Below are positions 1,451 through 9,411 of a stretch of DNA of 25,542 nucleotides, piece after piece. The notes below the pieces were generated by a model, which made no database searches, was not told the origin of the DNA, and worked only from the letters and a program-made list of their open reading frames with translations. The position numbers and the translations under genes are program-made. Position 1 is the first letter of the stretch; each line of letters opens with the position of its first letter. Origin of the DNA: a virus. Location: the IMG/VR virus record IMGVR_UViG_3300032665_000174, positions 1-25,542 of that record; one strand, written 5' to 3'.

Positions 1451-1804
1451 ATGGGAGTTAGATTAGGCGGCAGGGCACCGGGAACGCCCAACAAGGCGAC
1501 TTCTGACGCAAGACAGGCCATAGCCTCATTTGTTGACGGAAACGCTCACAGGCTCTCTGAATGGCTCGATCAAGTGGCCAAGGGAGTGCGTAACGATGAG
1601 GGCGAATATGTTGTCCAGCCCAACCCAGCGAAGGCGTTCGACATGTTCCAGTCGGTTGTGGAGTACCACGTTCCTAAGCTGGCCCGCCATGAGCATGCGG
1701 GTGACCCCAACGCCCCGGTGGTGATCGACACCCACTTGAACTTGTTCAACGAACTGAAGAAGGCTGTGAAGCTCAAGAAGCAGGTCGACGCCAATGAAAG
1801 TTGA
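1451..1804 (+). CDS. Probable terminase small subunit
   Basis: A 117-aa protein directly upstream of, and overlapping by 11 nt, the large terminase gene, which is the usual place for the DNA-recognition subunit of the packaging motor. The N-terminus MGVRLGGRAPGTPNKATSDA carries the GGRxxGTPNK signature seen in phage DNA-binding and small-terminase-like proteins. The middle is helical, and the Lys-rich C-terminus (ELKKAVKLKKQ) could contact the large subunit. ATG 1451 is preceded by AGGGAG at 8-nt spacing. The role is inferred from position, size and the N-terminal motif; an unrelated small DNA-binding protein is the alternative. Confidence 0.65.
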   Translation: MGVRLGGRAPGTPNKATSDARQAIASFVDGNAHRLSEWLDQVAKGVRNDEGEYVVQPNPAKAFDMFQSVVEYHVPKLARHEHAGDPNAPVVIDTHLNLFNELKKAVKLKKQVDANES

Positions 1805-4061
1805 GGACGTACTAGACGACCCCAAGACGCAGGAGATGTTCCTGCAACTGTCCACAGAGGACAGGGCTGCATGGCTGTGGTGGATGGATTGGCACTACAA
1901 CAAGGCCATGGACTACCAGATCGAGCCGACTGGCGATCATTGGTCGATCTGGATGATGTTGGCTGGCCGCGGAGCCGGTAAGACACGCACGGCCGCGGAG
2001 ACTATCGGTCAATGGGCATGGGAGAACCCCAACACACGCTGGCTGGTAGCGGCCCCCACAAGTTCTGACGTCCGCGGCACATGCTTTGAGGGTGAGTCCG
2101 GTTTACTGGCCGTGATCCCCAAAGAACTGGTTGAGCCGGATGGATATAACAAGAGCCTGCACGAGTTGTATCTCAAGAATGGCTCATTGATCAAAGGCAT
2201 CTCAGCGAGTGAGCCTGACCGCTTCCGGGGTGCTCAGTGGCACGGCGCATGGTGCTTGCCTGCCGGTACGCGCATTCTTATGGCTGATGGGTCTCAAAAG
2301 CCTGTAGAGACTGTGAAGGCTGGTGAGCAAGTGCAAACACGCTTCGGCCCTCAAAACGTCTCAGTAGCATTGCCATCAAGCAATCCCAATATGCTAGTAA
2401 CTATCGATTGTGGCGATACGAACTTGACATTGACTGTTGATCATCCGATACTTGTTGGAAGTCGGTGGATTCCCGCTGGCCAGATCAAAAAAGGTGAAAT
2501 GGTATGGGTGGCTACAAGTACATTGGCGGTCGATACGCTCACAGAGTCATTTACGAGCAACACTATGGATCAATCCCAAAAGGATGGGTTGTCCACCACA
2601 AAGACGAAGACAAAAGTAACAACGATCCCGCGAACCTTGAAGCAATGCCTCGCAGCCAGCATGTCCATCATCACGCAGTTGGGCGCGAAGGATCTGATGC
2701 ACAGAGGGAGGCAGCACGCAACACGCTGGCGTCTTTGCGCACGCCAAAAAATGCAAAATGCATTCACTGTGGTGCAGGCTTTGTTTCCTACTCCGCTTCA
2801 GATGTCGGCAAGTTTTGCTCCCGCGATTGCCGTGAGCAGTGGAGGCGAAACAAGTTCATACCTGAGCAACGCAACTGCAATGTCTGTGGCACAGAGTACA
2901 CAGCAGTCAAGAGATTCCAGAGGTATTGTTGCAAGTCCTGTAACGCCAGATCAACTGAGCGCACCTATCGGGCTGAAGCAAATGGAGGTACTAAGCGTCG
3001 AACGCTTGGAGAACTGCCAGACGTACAACCTCACAGTTGACTACGTCAATGAGTACATAGCCAACGGCATCGTCGTACACAATTGCGACGAGTTGGCCGC
3101 ATGGGATTACCTGCAAGAGTCGTGGGACATGATCATGTTTTCGGTTCGGCTGGGTAAGCGCACGAAGGTGATCGTTACCACCACGCCCAAGCCCAAGCCA
3201 TTGATCATGGATCTGGTTGGCCGCGAGGGGGATGATGTGGTGATCACACGCGCCTCGACATACTCAAACATCAAGAACTTGGCGCCATCGTTCCAGAAGC
3301 AGATTCTTCAGTACGAGGGCACAAACTTAGGAAGGCAGGAAATCCATGCAGAAATCATCGACCCCGAAGAAGGGGGCATTGTTAAGCGCGACTGGTTCCG
3401 CCTCTGGCCGGGACACAAGCCCTTCCCCAAGTTCGAGTACATCATCCAGTCTTACGACTGTGCCACTAGCGACAAGACCCACAACGATCCAACTGGCTGC
3501 ATTACTCTGGGCGTATTCAAGCCCCTCGACGGTGGGATGTGTGTCATGGTCATCGACTGCTGGCAAGACCACCTCACCTACCCCCAACTGCGCCCCAAAG
3601 TAATCGACGAGTTCGAAGTCGTATACGGCGAGGGCAAGGAGAAGAAGCGCGTCGACCTCTTATTGGTGGAGGACAAGTCGGCTGGCATCTCATTGATACA
3701 AGACTTGCAACAGGCTGGTCTACCCGTCCACGCATACAACCCCGGCCGCGCCGACAAGATTCAGCGCCTGAGCATCGTGGCCAACATCATCAAAGCTGGC
3801 CGTGTATGGGTGCCTGAGTCTGACCAGCGTAAGGGCTACGTCCGCGCATGGGCTGAGGGCATGGTCAGCCAGATCTGCTCCTTCCCCGAAGGAACAGAAC
3901 ACGACGAGTTCGTGGACTGCATCTCACAAGGCCTGCGCTACCTGCGTGACGGCGGCTGGATCACCATCGACTTCCCGCGGGACGACAGCGTGGACAGCGA
4001 TGACATCGAGGACGCAGAGTTGTACAACATGCGGCACAAAGGGAATCCTTACGCATCGTGA
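1794..4061 (+). CDS. terL: Terminase large subunit with intein
   Basis: A 755-aa precursor; removing the 277-aa intein (residues 154-430) leaves 478 aa, a normal size for the ATPase-nuclease that pumps DNA into the prohead. The ATPase half has Walker A GRGAGKT at residues 58-64. After splicing, QWHGAW joins CDELAAW to form the Walker B region with its catalytic Asp-Glu. A TTTPKPKP stretch follows at the coupling-motif position. The nuclease half shows the acidic residues expected of the RNase H-like fold: D555 (SYDCATSD), E626-D627 (LLVEDKSAG) and D708 (DEFVDCISQGLRYL). ATG 1794 lies in the end of the small-subunit gene, with a weak ribosome-binding site, consistent with coupling. Insertion at Walker B makes activity depend on splicing. 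Confidence 0.93.
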   Translation: MKVEDVLDDPKTQEMFLQLSTEDRAAWLWWMDWHYNKAMDYQIEPTGDHWSIWMMLAGRGAGKTRTAAETIGQWAWENPNTRWLVAAPTSSDVRGTCFEGESGLLAVIPKELVEPDGYNKSLHELYLKNGSLIKGISASEPDRFRGAQWHGAWCLPAGTRILMADGSQKPVETVKAGEQVQTRFGPQNVSVALPSSNPNMLVTIDCGDTNLTLTVDHPILVGSRWIPAGQIKKGEMVWVATSTLAVDTLTESFTSNTMDQSQKDGLSTTKTKTKVTTIPRTLKQCLAASMSIITQLGAKDLMHRGRQHATRWRLCARQKMQNAFTVVQALFPTPLQMSASFAPAIAVSSGGETSSYLSNATAMSVAQSTQQSRDSRGIVASPVTPDQLSAPIGLKQMEVLSVERLENCQTYNLTVDYVNEYIANGIVVHNCDELAAWDYLQESWDMIMFSVRLGKRTKVIVTTTPKPKPLIMDLVGREGDDVVITRASTYSNIKNLAPSFQKQILQYEGTNLGRQEIHAEIIDPEEGGIVKRDWFRLWPGHKPFPKFEYIIQSYDCATSDKTHNDPTGCITLGVFKPLDGGMCVMVIDCWQDHLTYPQLRPKVIDEFEVVYGEGKEKKRVDLLLVEDKSAGISLIQDLQQAGLPVHAYNPGRADKIQRLSIVANIIKAGRVWVPESDQRKGYVRAWAEGMVSQICSFPEGTEHDEFVDCISQGLRYLRDGGWITIDFPRDDSVDSDDIEDAELYNMRHKGNPYAS
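2253..3083 (+). other. Intein in TerL Walker B region
   Basis: A protein-splicing element of 277 codons. Block A starts CLPAGTRILMADGS with nucleophile C154. Block B is LTVDHPIL, with T214 and H217 in the usual TxxH arrangement, followed by RWIPAGQIKKGE. The C-terminal block runs QTYNLTVDY...EYIANGIVVHN and ends in H429-N430, followed by extein Cys431. All residues needed for Cys-type splicing are present. The central linker (about residues 240-396) is Thr/Ser/Ala-rich and matches no endonuclease in this frame; the endonuclease is in another frame of the same DNA (2504-3040). In related phages the Cys before Asp-Glu is a normal TerL residue, so the intein uses a native Cys as its +1 nucleophile. 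Confidence 0.92.
2504..3040 (+). CDS. HNH homing endonuclease nested out of frame in intein
   Basis: A 178-aa ORF in a +2 frame relative to terL. Residues 11-57 form a clear HNH domain: YAHRVIYEQH, IPKGWVVHHKDEDKSNND, NLEAM, then SQHVHHH, with H31/H32, N39/N40 and H53 as likely metal and catalytic positions. Two Cys4 fingers follow: C86/C89/C105/C109 and C125/C128/C143/C146. ATG 2504 has AAGGTGA six nt upstream, and an in-frame TGA at 2495-2497 rules out read-in from upstream in this frame, so independent initiation is likely. It would cut an intein-free terL allele to drive homing. The last 59 nt also encode the intein's C-terminal splicing block, so real dual coding is required. A pair of compensating sequencing indels is the main alternative. 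Confidence 0.85.
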   Translation: MGGYKYIGGRYAHRVIYEQHYGSIPKGWVVHHKDEDKSNNDPANLEAMPRSQHVHHHAVGREGSDAQREAARNTLASLRTPKNAKCIHCGAGFVSYSASDVGKFCSRDCREQWRRNKFIPEQRNCNVCGTEYTAVKRFQRYCCKSCNARSTERTYRAEANGGTKRRTLGELPDVQPHS

Positions 4062-4153: not shown

Positions 4154-4176
4154 GCCGAAAACTCCCCGAGGTGCCC

Positions 4177-7100
4177 ATGGCCAAACAACAAGGAATAACC
4201 TATGACACAGCACAAGAAGGCCCATTCTACCGAGTCCGCCCACATGGCGTTGCATCGGGCTTCGCAGCTACGAGCGGCAATATTGAAAGCCATCGGGACA
4301 CCGGTCAAGGCCAGCAAGGACTATCACGAGACACAGTTCCGCAACCACTTACGGACGAAGCGGTCAAAGGGATAATCAAAGGCCCGGACAATGCCATTCG
4401 CCATGCGGCTGAGGCATATACAAAACAGCATTTAGGCAAACCGTACAAGCCTGTTGACAATTCATCCAGTTCATTGTCCAAGCAAGGCGCCATTGGACGC
4501 ACATTCCTTCTGGCGGCCACAGATCACCCCGAGTACAAGAAAGCCGTATACGAGGCTTACAAGCGCCACATGCCTGAGCACGTTGGTGAGGCTCAAGACT
4601 ACGATCAACTGCTGCAAAAAGCGTACGGCCACTTAGCCCATGAAACTAAGCGCCAGTTTGAGAGCCTACCAATCAACATGAGTTTTCACCGCAATGGTGA
4701 AGGCAACTACCAAGACAGCAAAGAGATGATGCGCGATGTGCATGGCCACCGACACCTCTATGTTTTCCAAGGCGGCGACCGCCATGACTTTTTGCATAAC
4801 GTCCATCCCGAGTCGGGCTTAAATGACAATGAAATGTTCCGGGCGGTGCATGATGTCTATGGCCATGCCTTGCACGGCACGACCTTTGGCCCTCAAGGCG
4901 AAGAGAAGGCTTGGGCGGCTCACTCTGGTATGTTCAGCCAGTTGGCTCAAGCAGCCATGACGGCAGAGACTCGTGGCCAAAACAGTGTAGTTAATTACAC
5001 GCCGTTAAATGCCCGCATAAAAGCTGAAGTGGCAGCGTTGGATGAGACTGCTTATGACGCCAAGCGCAAGGGCCGTATGGACTTGTTTGAAGCCGCCAAG
5101 GCCGAGAAGAAGAACTTACTGGACAACCATTTCCAGTTTGCCCCTCAAAGGGCTGTGTTGTTGCCTCCAGAGATGAACAGTGGCAGTTATGCTGGTGGCA
5201 TTCCCGCATACATCCGCCACTTGATCCAACCAGAAGGCGGCGAGACTGCGCAACTGACGCACTTCAGCCACGAACCGAACCTGACTATGACCGACCCAAC
5301 CCGATATGGCACTGGCATCAAAGGTGCAGAAGCAAGCCGCTTACAAGAACCCGGCGCCGTGCGTGACCGGACGTATTTTTATGCTGGCAACCCAGAACGT
5401 GGTGAAGTTGGTTTGGGCACACATAAATACAAAGCGATGGTCGACAAGTTGTATGACATGGGCGCTGACCCGTTAATGCTGCGCAAGCTTGCCGTGGAGG
5501 CCAACAGGACGCCTCATACGTCCATGGTCAACCCCGGCTTGGTGGATCAAGTGCAGGCAGCCAATGATTACGAACGGCTCATCAAAGACTACGGATACAA
5601 CGGCATGATTAACCGGAATCTGAGCATGCCAACTGCGGCGGTGTTCAACCCCGTGCCGGTACAAAAGTATGCTGACGGTAACAGCGTGAAGCCTTTGACG
5701 TTGCCGGATGTGCATAAACAGACAATTGGTCTGGCTCAACAGTTAATGGCAGACAATCCAAAGATGGATATGCAGTCGGCTTTGGAAAAAGCTGGTCAAC
5801 ATTTATCCAAGAAGTTTGACTGGGAACACGACACTAAGCCAGCATTGGAAAAAACGTATGGGGCATTACAACCGGCTGAGTATTCGGCCAGCGCACCACA
5901 ACGACAAAAAAATACTCCAGAAGTAGTCCAAAAAAGAATTGAGCACACGCAACAGTTTTTGAGCCAACCCACGGAGCCGTGGCAACCGCCTCCGCCTGAA
6001 AAGCAAGCTTTTGATCGTGCAGCAATCAAACATGCATTGGGTGGTTTCCCGGATGTGGAACAAAGCAAGTTCCCCAGAGATGTACCTCCACGAGCCAACA
6101 TCGAGCATGTGCATGAGGTTTACCAAGACCCGGTTAACCGCGAGTTGATCAAAAAACAAATCTTGCGCGGTTTGCCTTTAGGCGGTGAAACTTTTTACGC
6201 ATCGTTGTATCCAGTCAAGTTGGCTGCTATGGAGGCGGGCATTCCCGAAGAAAAGTTTAATAGTTGGATTCACAGCATTGCCCCGGCTTCGGCCCGTAAC
6301 TCAATCATGAATGAGATGGCGGTGGGTCAAGCCATTCGTGACTTGCATGCTCGAGGCGTTGAATTAACTCCAACAAACATGGAAAAATTACGTCAAGAGT
6401 TCAAAGAAAAACATGGCGTTGGTTTGCCCATGATGCCTTCGCATGAAGAAGGCGTGGCCAGCGTTCTTAACAACAACACCGATTTGCGCCAGCACAGTTT
6501 GGCCAACATCCCTACCAACTACAAAATCCCAACCTATGGCACACAAAAGGCTGGCGATTTTGCGCATTCTTGGGTGGGTGATGTGCATGAGGCGGCAGGT
6601 GAAACGCTTGGCAGCCCATACCATCCTTACTTTAAAGAGTCGGGTGGGTTTAAGAATCTTGAGTACGGCGCAGCAGAAAACCACATGTTGGATATTGCTA
6701 AAGAACTGGGGATACCCGGCGGTATGGCGCAAGCAGGACGTTGGTTTGGTGGTGGTGAACTGACCGGTTTGGTATCGCCTCGCGGTGATGCGTTGGACTT
6801 GTTGGAAAAGCAAGTTGCTTACAGTTTGCATCAACAAGGTATCAATCCAACTCCCAAGGCAGTACGCGACTACACATTAAACATGATCAAGACTGGGCGT
6901 GGAACTTTGCTGCCTTGGTTTAAAAAGAGTGGCATGCCTGATGTTAGAACCGTTAAAAAAGATGGAGGCTCTGTAGAACCATCAATCGACGAGATGCAAG
7001 CCGCCTTGGCACTGCGCAAGCCCGTACACTTGGCTATCGGTGGTCAAGGGCCACGCAATTGGATGAAGGGCGTTGAAGGCGTGATCAACCCGTTGAAGGG

Positions 7101-9411
7101 GCCTGAATCACCGCGCTACAACCACATCAATGACGAAGGCCAAGCAGTTGGTGAAAACTACGGTCGCCCAATGACCGAGCAAGAACTTCAAGCCTTGAGT
7201 GCCGACCCCATGTATGCAAGGAACAAGGCGCTTAACAAATGGGTGGAGAGCAACCTTGGCAACTACATTCGCAAGCAGATGGCAACGCCAAACGATCCGA
7301 TTCGCAAGCTGGCTGAAGAAGGCATCGTTCACATGGAGCCCGAGATGATGGGCACAGGCCAATACCTTGCTCGAGGCATGGAAGAGCCTGAGTACCATCG
7401 TCAACGTCATGGCGGTGAACGCCTTGGAAAATCAGAGGCTGCCAAAGCATGGGAAGACGCATCCGATGTATCGCTGGGCAAGACAACTGTTGGCGATGTT
7501 CTGCGCATGGGTCAAACTTCAGCAGGTTCTCATCATGTCGAACCATGGATGGAAAAGGCTGATCCAAAAACCGAACTGTTCCACCCGACAGATAACATGC
7601 ATGCGCATTATCTTGGGTTTGACCATATTGTCGACATCCTTAAGCAAGACTTGGCTGAAGGTCGTATTCGTCCAGACCAACTCAACAAGATCAGCATAGA
7701 ACAAGCCGTTCGTCGTGCCCATGAGTACAACGAAGAGCGCAAACGCAAAATGGCTGAGACTGCGCTCAAAGCAACTGAGGGGATGCCAGTCCATAAGGAC
7801 TACGGCAACGGCTTTAGATGGCTGGAACTGGCTCTGGACAAGAACCTGCCCGAAGGCTGGAGCCAACATCCGTCCGGCACATATACTGACCCGCAAGGCG
7901 TCAACCATGTCCAACATCCCAACTACAGCAAGCTGGAAGAGGCGCTGAAGTATGAAGGCGACACAATGGGTCACTGCGTTGGTGGGTACTGCCCAGATGT
8001 TGCAAGTGGCAATACTCGTATTTTTAGTTTGCGTGACAAGAAGAATGAGCCGCATGTAACGATTGAGGTTGAGCCCAAAGGGGCGGTCTTCAGTGATGTG
8101 GCAAAGTATATTGGTAAAGAAGAGGCTGATCGGTTACTTGACCAAGGCGTTACTTTGAGTGAAATGATCAAAAACATTCCTAATTTTCAATACCCGCAAC
8201 GTATCAACCAAATCAAAGGCAAGGGCAACGCCAAGCCTGCGGCCAAGTACATTCCTTACGCGCAAGACTTTGTGAAGTCGGGCAATTGGACAAATGTTGA
8301 AGACTTGCATCACGCCGACATGGTTCCCATTGGCAACAACAAGTATTTAGACCAAAACGAAGCAAAAAAACATTACGAACCACGCATAAAAATGGCGATT
8401 GAATTTTTGCAGAACCATCCAGCGTTCAAAGAACAGCATGCTGCAAAAGAAGCATATTATGGTAATAACTACGATTACCACAATAAACGCAACATTGAAA
8501 AAGTTTATCAAGAACCACTTTACCCAAATTCAAGCTACACGGCACCGGATCTGCTTAAATCTATTAAAAATCCACAAGATTATGTTAGAAATGTAAATGA
8601 GCATTACCCAAGCCTTAATTATTGGCTCAGCGAAGCTGAAAAAGGAATGGCTCATCACGGTTATGAACCGCCAGTTCAACAAAAAGCCCGCGGCGGCATT
8701 GTTTACAAAGCAACAGGAGGCTCTATGCCATCATTAAGTCAAATGCAAGCAGAGTTGATGATGAAACAACCGACAAGCCTTTCAAACATCACCAATGTTG
8801 GCGCTGAAGAAGCCCCCAACCTACCAGTCAAAGACTTCATCCTGCCTCATGGCCAACACCCCGGCCAGTTGCCCGTTGGCGGTATCGATATGCAGCCCGC
8901 GGTGCCCGGGCAACAATTGTGGCCTACACAACCACCTGCACCGGGACAACAGCCCCAGCAAGGCCAACAGCAGCCTCAGCAAGGCGGCCAACTACCACAA
9001 GGTGGCCCACAGGGTCAACCGCCCAGCAACATCCTTCAAATGACGCCCCAAGGCCGAGCCATGGGTGCTATGCAACCGCAACAGCCAGCAGCAATGGCCA
9101 GAGGTGGCAGTGTGCCGTCCAAGTATGAAGTGAAACCCTACCATGACGACGAGGGAAAACGTGTTGGTTGGAGTGTTCATGAAGGCGATTACATCCATGA
9201 CGTGTACCCAACCAAAGCGTATGCCGTCAATGTGATGAAGCAATGGATTGAGCACGATAAGAAAAAGAACGAACCCCAGCAAGCCAAAAAAGGTGGGACA
9301 ATCAAGCCTGTTGGGCACGGCATCACCAAAGAAAAAGTTACAATTTCGCCCAACCTTGACGCCATGCAGTACGAACTGATGAGCGTTAAACACTTTAAGA
9401 AGGCCAAGTGA
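4177..9411 (+). CDS. Giant multidomain polyvalent-type protein (1744 aa)
   Basis: ATG 4177 is chosen because GAGGTG (4168-4173) is its Shine-Dalgarno; GTG 4171 lies inside that site. Visible segments in order: residues 130-300, a domain with FRAVHDVYGHALHG (H225) and a following WAAHSGM...AMTAETRGQN motif; residues 360-505, an ADP-ribosyltransferase/MuF-like pattern (THFSHEPNL, YGTGIKGA, RTYFYAG, YGYNGMI, AAVFNPVPVQKY); residues 600-930, unrecognised helical region; about 1190-1400, a PcfJ-like domain with HCVGGY at 1266-1271, IFSLRD and QIKGKGN; 1557-1640, a Pro/Gln-rich linker; then a short C-terminal domain. A GG...MQxxL motif occurs three times. Large polyvalent proteins encoded beside portal genes are often packaged and injected; that role is inferred. 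Confidence 0.7.
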   Translation: MAKQQGITYDTAQEGPFYRVRPHGVASGFAATSGNIESHRDTGQGQQGLSRDTVPQPLTDEAVKGIIKGPDNAIRHAAEAYTKQHLGKPYKPVDNSSSSLSKQGAIGRTFLLAATDHPEYKKAVYEAYKRHMPEHVGEAQDYDQLLQKAYGHLAHETKRQFESLPINMSFHRNGEGNYQDSKEMMRDVHGHRHLYVFQGGDRHDFLHNVHPESGLNDNEMFRAVHDVYGHALHGTTFGPQGEEKAWAAHSGMFSQLAQAAMTAETRGQNSVVNYTPLNARIKAEVAALDETAYDAKRKGRMDLFEAAKAEKKNLLDNHFQFAPQRAVLLPPEMNSGSYAGGIPAYIRHLIQPEGGETAQLTHFSHEPNLTMTDPTRYGTGIKGAEASRLQEPGAVRDRTYFYAGNPERGEVGLGTHKYKAMVDKLYDMGADPLMLRKLAVEANRTPHTSMVNPGLVDQVQAANDYERLIKDYGYNGMINRNLSMPTAAVFNPVPVQKYADGNSVKPLTLPDVHKQTIGLAQQLMADNPKMDMQSALEKAGQHLSKKFDWEHDTKPALEKTYGALQPAEYSASAPQRQKNTPEVVQKRIEHTQQFLSQPTEPWQPPPPEKQAFDRAAIKHALGGFPDVEQSKFPRDVPPRANIEHVHEVYQDPVNRELIKKQILRGLPLGGETFYASLYPVKLAAMEAGIPEEKFNSWIHSIAPASARNSIMNEMAVGQAIRDLHARGVELTPTNMEKLRQEFKEKHGVGLPMMPSHEEGVASVLNNNTDLRQHSLANIPTNYKIPTYGTQKAGDFAHSWVGDVHEAAGETLGSPYHPYFKESGGFKNLEYGAAENHMLDIAKELGIPGGMAQAGRWFGGGELTGLVSPRGDALDLLEKQVAYSLHQQGINPTPKAVRDYTLNMIKTGRGTLLPWFKKSGMPDVRTVKKDGGSVEPSIDEMQAALALRKPVHLAIGGQGPRNWMKGVEGVINPLKGPESPRYNHINDEGQAVGENYGRPMTEQELQALSADPMYARNKALNKWVESNLGNYIRKQMATPNDPIRKLAEEGIVHMEPEMMGTGQYLARGMEEPEYHRQRHGGERLGKSEAAKAWEDASDVSLGKTTVGDVLRMGQTSAGSHHVEPWMEKADPKTELFHPTDNMHAHYLGFDHIVDILKQDLAEGRIRPDQLNKISIEQAVRRAHEYNEERKRKMAETALKATEGMPVHKDYGNGFRWLELALDKNLPEGWSQHPSGTYTDPQGVNHVQHPNYSKLEEALKYEGDTMGHCVGGYCPDVASGNTRIFSLRDKKNEPHVTIEVEPKGAVFSDVAKYIGKEEADRLLDQGVTLSEMIKNIPNFQYPQRINQIKGKGNAKPAAKYIPYAQDFVKSGNWTNVEDLHHADMVPIGNNKYLDQNEAKKHYEPRIKMAIEFLQNHPAFKEQHAAKEAYYGNNYDYHNKRNIEKVYQEPLYPNSSYTAPDLLKSIKNPQDYVRNVNEHYPSLNYWLSEAEKGMAHHGYEPPVQQKARGGIVYKATGGSMPSLSQMQAELMMKQPTSLSNITNVGAEEAPNLPVKDFILPHGQHPGQLPVGGIDMQPAVPGQQLWPTQPPAPGQQPQQGQQQPQQGGQLPQGGPQGQPPSNILQMTPQGRAMGAMQPQQPAAMARGGSVPSKYEVKPYHDDEGKRVGWSVHEGDYIHDVYPTKAYAVNVMKQWIEHDKKKNEPQQAKKGGTIKPVGHGITKEKVTISPNLDAMQYELMSVKHFKKAK

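What the first reader, a model, noticed from the sequence alone, without database searches (positions are those of the whole stretch)
2504..3040. HNH endonuclease encoded out of frame inside the terminase intein
The intein has all splicing residues, but its central linker in the terL frame resembles no endonuclease. In another frame the same DNA encodes a 178-aa protein with a textbook HNH domain and two Cys4 fingers, its own AAGGTGA and ATG, and an in-frame TGA nine nt before the ATG that blocks read-in. Normal inteins carry the endonuclease in frame as one fused protein. Here the parasite appears to have separated splicing from cutting while staying in the same DNA: one message, two proteins from overlapping frames. 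The terL frame stays free of stops for about 160 codons across the HNH gene, which is unlikely by chance, and the last 59 nt must encode both the HNH tail and the C-terminal splicing block. It is conceptually intermediate between a classical intein and a mini-intein with a free-standing endonuclease.
Basis: partly seen in the sequence, partly recalled or inferred. Interest (0 to 1): 0.9.

Follow-up and report, generated by a model that had tools for sequence, protein, structure and literature searches.

The report
Intein hiding an out-of-frame endonuclease gene
A self-splicing insert in a phage DNA-packaging gene carries its DNA-cutting enzyme as a second gene read in another frame of the same DNA, and this is a widespread, strongly selected arrangement in phages that grades into naturally split inteins.

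Summary
TerL (1794-4061) carries an intein (2253-3083) with complete splicing motifs. An HNH_3 gene (2504-3040, 178 aa, two Cys4 fingers) lies in another frame inside it. It is not an artefact: an independent assembly is identical across the locus, and 14 more TerL homologues keep both reading frames in the same phase.

The codon position that diverges fastest switches from TerL position 3 to TerL position 2 (the HNH wobble) across 2514-2993 only. HNH is therefore the constrained frame and the TerL-frame linker need only stay open. AlphaFold agrees: a confident Hint fold split by a disordered linker in the TerL frame, and a moderately confident HNH fold in the other.

The HNH start and stop signals are built from intein codons.

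It is a class, not an oddity. Of 114 related HNH genes, 75 are nested out of frame in contiguous inteins (nearly all in terL), 17 sit between the halves of split inteins, and none is fused in frame.

Two papers mention out-of-frame HNH genes: brucellaphage terL in passing, and the ShiLan element, which has no intein. I found no published account of the class; one relevant preprint could not be read. Splicing, cleavage and HNH expression are inferred.

The parts
1794..4061 (+). terL, terminase large subunit with intein, 755 aa, one open frame
   Evidence: Terminase_6N and Terminase_6C; PHROG terminase; stop-free
2253..3083 (+). Intein in TerL frame, 277 aa, inserted in Walker B (GAW|C...HN|CDELAAW)
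   Evidence: Junctions from intein-less MW202545/L001; block motifs conserved in 15 homologues; Intein_splicing, Vint, TIGR01443
2253..2528 (+). N-terminal Hint half (C1, LTVDHPIL, A-G-x-I-KKGE)
   Evidence: AlphaFold block means of 90 or more over residues 1-90; Foldseek to RecA, DnaB and gp41-1 inteins
2529..2957 (+). TerL-frame linker (residues 93-235), predicted disordered, no endonuclease signature
   Evidence: pLDDT below 50 throughout; only 27-43% identity between homologues against 63-73% for HNH on nearly the same DNA
2958..3083 (+). C-terminal Hint half ending VVHN|C
   Evidence: pLDDT above 90 from residue 241; TIGR01443 intein_Cterm
2504..3040 (+). Out-of-frame HNH endonuclease gene, 178 aa, -1 relative to TerL
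   Evidence: PF13392 E=1.4e-20; PHROG 15471 E=1e-25; similar to I-HmuI
2531..2665 (+). HNH_3 domain (HHKDEDKSNN motif)
   Evidence: Pfam residues 10-54; invariant H31 H32 D34 N39 N40 N44 H53 H57
2759..2941 (+). Two Cys4 fingers (C86/C89/C105/C109 and C125/C128/C142/C146)
   Evidence: All eight Cys invariant in 23 aligned homologues
2491..2497 (+). Shine-Dalgarno AAGGTGA built from intein codons for K-G-E; includes TGA (2495-2497) that stops read-in in the HNH frame
   Evidence: SD-like purine run at the same motif in the homologues; Gly codon GGG 8/14 against 75/429 in exteins
2504..2506 (+). HNH start ATG, formed by host codons GTA|TGG (Val-Trp)
   Evidence: A-ending V/L/I codon at this site in 13/14 homologues against 117/1357 in exteins, p=4e-13; the 14th gives GTG
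3038..3040 (+). HNH stop TGA, inside host codons GTT|GAC of the C-terminal splicing block
   Evidence: HNH stop lies 1-95 nt before the extein junction in 73/73 nested loci, commonly 43 or 55 nt
2504..2528 (+). 5' dual-coding stretch: HNH N terminus over end of N-Hint
   Evidence: Overlap of HNH ORF with AlphaFold-ordered intein residues 84-92
2958..3040 (+). 3' dual-coding stretch: HNH C terminus over start of C-Hint
   Evidence: Overlap; fastest-diverging codon position returns to TerL position 3 by about 3000

Best explanation
This is a mobile intein that has uncoupled splicing from cutting without leaving its DNA. Shown by sequence: the TerL frame encodes a Hint splicing domain interrupted by a long linker that folds into nothing recognisable, and the -1 frame of that linker DNA encodes a free HNH_3 homing-type endonuclease with its own ribosome-binding site, start and stop, all written in intein codons. 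Inferred: ribosomes reading through in the TerL frame make a precursor, and the intein excises itself by Cys1/His/Asn/Cys+1 chemistry to give intact TerL. Other ribosomes start internally at 2504 and make the HNH enzyme, which cuts intein-less terL alleles near Walker B during co-infection, so that repair copies the intein and its enzyme across. Selection keeps the TerL frame free of stops because TerL is essential, and the HNH frame intact because mobility depends on it. When stops or frameshifts break the TerL frame but the halves can still join, the result is a naturally split intein with the HNH gene between the halves, as seen in 17 relatives.
For: (a) Fourteen homologues plus an identical independent assembly keep both frames, phase and all splicing residues. 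(b) Fastest-diverging codon position switches to HNH wobble over 2514-2993 only. (c) Intein codons are constrained by HNH signals: start codon 13/14 A-ending against 8.6% background; SD at the most upstream ATG in 50/65 nested loci against 20% background. (d) Stop avoidance in TerL frame: 0 observed in 74 nested genes, about 115 expected; L022, nested in the other phase, has 0 where 6.2 are expected (0 of 20,000 permutations); split inteins show no avoidance, 6.8 against 6.3 per gene. (e) AlphaFold: Hint halves above 90, linker below 50, HNH mean 78; Foldseek hits inteins and I-HmuI. (f) Class survey: 75 nested, 17 split, 0 fused in frame. (g) A close TerL relative (83% identity in the C-extein) lacks the intein at exactly this site.
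Against: No protein, RNA or cleavage data. All loci are sequence only, and most are metagenomic. The SD test uses a simple motif list, and 14 of 75 loci show no SD by it. Homologues are related, so p-values are not independent trials. The HNH model is of moderate confidence (pTM 0.40) and its best structural match is weak (I-HmuI, E=0.009). A packaging role for the HNH protein is not excluded.
Confidence: 0.86

Rival explanations
1. Assembly artefact: two compensating indels put a normally in-frame HNH domain out of frame.
For: A classical intein with an in-frame endonuclease would look like this after two opposite indels. None of the evidence collected here points to it.
Against: Independent assembly identical across the locus; 14 diverged homologues with the same phase; TGA at 2495 in the HNH frame; 75 nested loci and no fused one; phage genomes TJE1, Highwayman and LS06-2018-MD07 show it too.
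Confidence: 0.01
2. The HNH protein is a packaging nuclease that works with terminase (as the HNH protein of HK97 does), not a homing enzyme.
For: Nested relatives sit almost only in terL. HNH proteins beside terminase act in cos cleavage in HK97-like phages (discussed in PMC10448857); the brucellaphage authors suggested a functional link to terminase (PMC4422536).
Against: It lies inside an intein, an element kept by homing. Insertion sites differ between TerL types (Walker B and nuclease motif). A close relative lacks intein and HNH together (L001). L006 and L031 carry two intein-HNH units in one terL. The HNH family resembles homing enzyme I-HmuI.
Confidence: 0.08
3. HNH is made by programmed -1 frameshifting, as a fusion to the N-terminal part of TerL and the intein.
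For: HNH is in the -1 frame, and an A-run (2487-2492) precedes it in the window.
Against: TGA at 2495 ends the -1 frame just after the A-run. The A-run is not conserved, while the SD and start codon are.
Confidence: 0.03
4. The HNH gene is a decaying relic and only the intein matters.
For: Inteins commonly lose their endonuclease (established knowledge).
Against: HNH is the conserved frame: 63-73% identity against 27-43% for the TerL-frame linker over nearly the same DNA. Wobble-type divergence, invariant catalytic and Cys residues, and constrained start codon.
Confidence: 0.02

Closest known systems
Brucellaphage Tb/Pr terL with out-of-frame HNH ORF 8 (PMC4422536)
   Same: HNH gene overlapping the middle of terL out of frame, called 'putative intein-encoded' by the authors.
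   Different: A remark in a SNP paper: no splicing motifs, selection, start signals or family shown in the section read. The genome is not in the collections here, so homology to this element was not tested.
ShiLan domain in mycobacteriophage DNA methylase (PMC11855218)
   Same: Out-of-frame HNH in an insertion whose host frame stays open; HNH stop TAA overlaps the last in-frame Asn codon (TAAC). In L127 the HNH stop is likewise at the terminal Asn codon, 1 nt before the junction.
   Different: The authors find no intein or intron splicing element and no RBS; here a complete Hint domain and an SD are present.
'Fractured genes': split inteins with a free endonuclease gene between the halves (Dassa et al. 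2009; known from citations and memory, text not held)
   Same: Endonuclease as its own gene between intein halves; 17 relatives here have that layout.
   Different: In the window and 74 other loci the intein is contiguous and overlaps the HNH gene in another frame. The 2009 endonuclease family differs (from memory).
Classical bifunctional inteins (PI-SceI type)
   Same: Endonuclease at the canonical site between Hint halves; insertion in conserved host motifs.
   Different: There the endonuclease is in frame and part of the intein; here it is in another frame and a separate protein.
TerL inteins of mycobacteriophages (PMC5050341)
   Same: Inteins in the TerL ATPase domain near P-loop and Walker B.
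   Different: A term search of the paper found no out-of-frame endonuclease described.
I-HmuI (PDB 1u3e)
   Same: HNH homing endonuclease, best solved relative by sequence and fold.
   Different: Encoded in a group I intron of phage SPO1 (from memory); here two C-terminal Cys4 fingers, and an intein.

Membership tests
Intein (self-splicing Hint) | Catalytic Cys1, block B T..H, penultimate His, terminal Asn, +1 Cys | tested here: met
   All present in window and homologues
Intein (self-splicing Hint) | Hint fold | tested here: met
   AlphaFold plus Foldseek to Mtu RecA, Npu DnaB and gp41-1 inteins, prob 1.00, target TM 0.76-0.86
Intein (self-splicing Hint) | Precise insertion relative to an empty allele | tested here: met
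   L001 W|LDELAAW against W|C...HN|CDELAAW
Intein (self-splicing Hint) | Splices in vitro or in vivo | not testable with these tools
   No experiment
Classical bifunctional intein | Endonuclease domain in frame between Hint halves | tested here: not met
   TerL-frame linker has no family match and is predicted disordered
Mini-intein | Short linker, no endonuclease gene within the intein | tested here: not met
   143-residue linker region whose DNA carries an HNH gene in another frame
Split (fractured) intein | N- and C-intein on separate ORFs | tested here: not met
   Single ORF in the window; met in 17 relatives
HNH_3 homing endonuclease | HNH domain with conserved H/N residues | tested here: met
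   PF13392 E=1.4e-20; invariant HH, NN and H residues
HNH_3 homing endonuclease | Site-specific cleavage and homing | not testable with these tools
   Inferred only; empty allele exists (L001)
ShiLan-type out-of-frame HNH insertion | Out-of-frame HNH with open host frame | tested here: met
ShiLan-type out-of-frame HNH insertion | No self-splicing element | tested here: not met
   Complete intein present

The most novel reading that the evidence does not exclude
Inteins with an overlapping, out-of-frame HNH gene are a distinct, common class in phage terminases and are the usual starting point from which this family's naturally split inteins arise: once the endonuclease is its own gene, any break in the linker leaves three working genes. 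The 3' overlap stays phase-locked (C-intein in +1 in 16 of 17 split cases) while the N-intein frame becomes free (6 in +1, 6 in 0, 5 in +2).
Probability: 0.5. Interest if true: 0.87.

Novelty: new variant of a known kind. Interest (0 to 1): 0.8.

Why it matters
Inteins are usually described as one fused splicing-plus-cutting protein or as a mini-intein that has lost the enzyme. Here is a recurring third layout in which one stretch of DNA serves two proteins, with the endonuclease's start and stop signals written in the splicing domain's own codons. It gives a testable route to naturally split inteins, which are widely used tools, and points to many uncharacterised phage TerL inteins that may already be nearly split. 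It also shows that current annotation misses such genes: the HNH gene is unannotated in the TJE1, Highwayman and LS06-2018-MD07 records.

Tried and rejected
Brucellaphage genomes were not in the collections, so the closest published precedent could not be aligned. Dassa 2009 and the preprint 'Actinobacteriophage Inteins... Non-Canonical Architecture' (bioRxiv 2025.01.02.630785) are not held; the latter may describe related cases. Literature searches for out-of-frame HNH inteins returned only the ShiLan and brucellaphage papers and one genome announcement. Frameshift production of HNH was considered and rejected because of the TGA at 2495. The stop-free argument from this sequence alone was tested and found weak (P=0.31). 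A phase bias that looked meaningful is largely explained by composition: the +1 frame of these HNH genes meets about nine times fewer stops than +2. Direction of change (nested to split or the reverse) is not settled by the HNH tree, which has no outgroup.

Full report
WHAT IS THERE. The window has one open frame from 1794 to 4061 that encodes a Terminase_6 large subunit interrupted by an intein. The intein runs from Cys154 to Asn430 (2253-3083) and is followed by Cys (GAW|CLPAGT ... VVHN|CDELAAW). The junctions are fixed by MW202545 (L001), whose TerL is 83% identical over the C-extein and lacks the insert at exactly this place (W|LDELAAW). The site is Walker B of the ATPase (motif assigned from established TerL anatomy). 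NCBIfam and Pfam see intein N- and C-terminal signatures but no endonuclease in the TerL frame. In the -1 frame, 2504-3040 encodes 178 residues with HNH_3 (E=1.4e-20) and two Cys4 fingers.

NOT AN ARTEFACT. L003, from another metagenome, matches 5,019 bp with a single mismatch at 5114, outside the locus. Fourteen further TerL homologues (L004-L017; 69-77% extein identity; L013 and L014 near-identical) all contain an intein at the same site with intact splicing motifs, all carry the HNH gene, and all place it in the same frame relative to TerL.

TWO FRAMES, TWO KINDS OF CONSTRAINT. Across TerL, codon position 3 diverges fastest. From 2514 to 2993 the fastest position becomes TerL position 2, which is the HNH wobble (0.44-0.65 against 0.08-0.32 for the other two), and it returns to position 3 by about 3000. 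HNH protein identity to the window is 63-73%, while the TerL-frame linker over nearly the same DNA is 27-43%. So HNH is the protein under selection, and the TerL reading of that DNA is a spacer that must not contain stops. AlphaFold agrees: intein residues 1-90 and 241-277 have pLDDT of about 90 or more and match solved inteins, residues 93-235 are below 50 throughout, and the HNH protein folds with mean pLDDT 78.

SIGNALS WRITTEN IN INTEIN CODONS. The Shine-Dalgarno lies in the codons of the intein's conserved (K/Q)-G-(D/E) motif. In homologues the Gly codon is GGG in 8/14 against 75/429 in exteins (p=0.001). The ATG is made from the end of a Val/Leu/Ile codon plus Trp or Cys; this codon ends in A in 13/14 against 117/1357 in exteins (p=4e-13), and the remaining homologue has a GTG start. 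Across the nested loci the most upstream ATG has an SD-like motif in 50 of 65, against 20% for same-frame ATG/GTG in the upstream extein. The HNH stop always falls 1-95 nt before the extein junction (73/73 loci), commonly 43 or 55 nt, inside the C-terminal part of the intein. These p-values treat related sequences as independent and are indicative only.

STOP AVOIDANCE. For the window alone an open TerL frame is not remarkable given the HNH codons (P=0.31). Over 75 nested genes, permuting HNH synonymous codons predicts 117 stops in the +1 frame. Eight are seen, all in L022, which is nested in the other (+2) phase. L022 itself has 0 stops in its host frame where 6.2 are expected (0 of 20,000 permutations). 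HNH genes lying in split inteins or without an intein show no avoidance (6.8 against 6.3, and 7.1 against 7.1 per gene). The usual phase is explained mostly by composition: +1 meets about nine times fewer stops than +2.

A CLASS, AND ITS LINK TO SPLIT INTEINS. A profile of nested HNH proteins, run on all loci gathered from viral contigs, bacterial genomes and phage records, gives 114 distinct genes. Of these, 75 are nested out of frame in a contiguous intein, 17 lie between an N-intein ORF and a C-intein ORF, 2 sit at contig edges with only a C-intein, 20 have no intein detected, and none is fused in frame. Flanking residues suggest that host genes are almost all terL, at Walker B or near the nuclease motif (DH|C-D-A-x-R-Y), and the sampled ORFs match terminase or intein families. 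In split cases the C-intein is in the +1 frame of HNH in 16 of 17, while the N-intein is in +1, 0 and +2 in 6, 6 and 5. That is expected if the HNH tail/C-intein overlap is kept while the front junction drifts after splitting. On the HNH tree the labels need many changes (nested 16, split 10, at least 3 forced for split), so passages between layouts recur. The tree has no outgroup, so direction is inferred from parsimony: losing an open frame is easy, clearing about seven stops is not.

HOW IT MOST LIKELY WORKS. TerL-frame translation gives a precursor that splices itself; internal initiation at 2504 gives a free HNH enzyme that cuts intein-less terL and drives homing. Shown: anatomy, conservation, selection on both frames, an empty allele. 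Inferred: splicing, initiation, cutting, homing.

KNOWN OR NEW. An out-of-frame HNH in brucellaphage terL was noted in one paragraph (PMC4422536). The ShiLan element has an out-of-frame HNH but no splicing element (PMC11855218). Split inteins flanking a free endonuclease gene are known as fractured genes (Dassa et al. 2009, cited in PMC3229294 and PMC10448857; text not held). I found no account of nested out-of-frame HNH inteins as a class, of their codon-level integration, or of their relation to split inteins; a 2025 preprint on non-canonical actinobacteriophage inteins could not be read. Hence: a new variant of a known kind, of high interest.

Noticed in passing
L026, L028, L071, L080, L089, L112, L128, L034/L048/L049, L061, L069, L032, L091, L132, L134, L135, L144: Apparent naturally split TerL inteins with an HNH gene between the halves, including Vibrio phages 1.238.A and 1.245.O, where the C-intein ORF is annotated as a hedgehog/hint protein.
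   Followed up: partly
L006:1-2835: One terL ORF carries two inteins (Walker B and nuclease domain), each with its own out-of-frame HNH gene. L031 is similar, with two nested HNH genes in one terL.
   Followed up: partly
L019:2072-6691: A very long terL-like ORF with a LAGLIDADG domain near the N terminus and a separate intein with an out-of-frame HNH near the C terminus.
   Followed up: no
L022:3519-6698: The only contiguous intein found with the HNH gene in the opposite phase (+2), with strong stop avoidance in that frame.
   Followed up: yes
L046, L047, L050: In the public records of Tetrasphaera phage TJE1, Acinetobacter phage Highwayman and Rhodobacteraceae phage LS06-2018-MD07 the nested HNH gene is not annotated.
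   Followed up: yes
window 4171-9411: A 1746-aa ORF directly downstream of terL, not examined.
   Followed up: no
ShiLan element (PMC11855218): Its reported end TAAC, with Asn as last in-frame residue, matches the phase of the nested inteins here, so it may be related to one that lost its splicing domain. Not tested.
   Followed up: no
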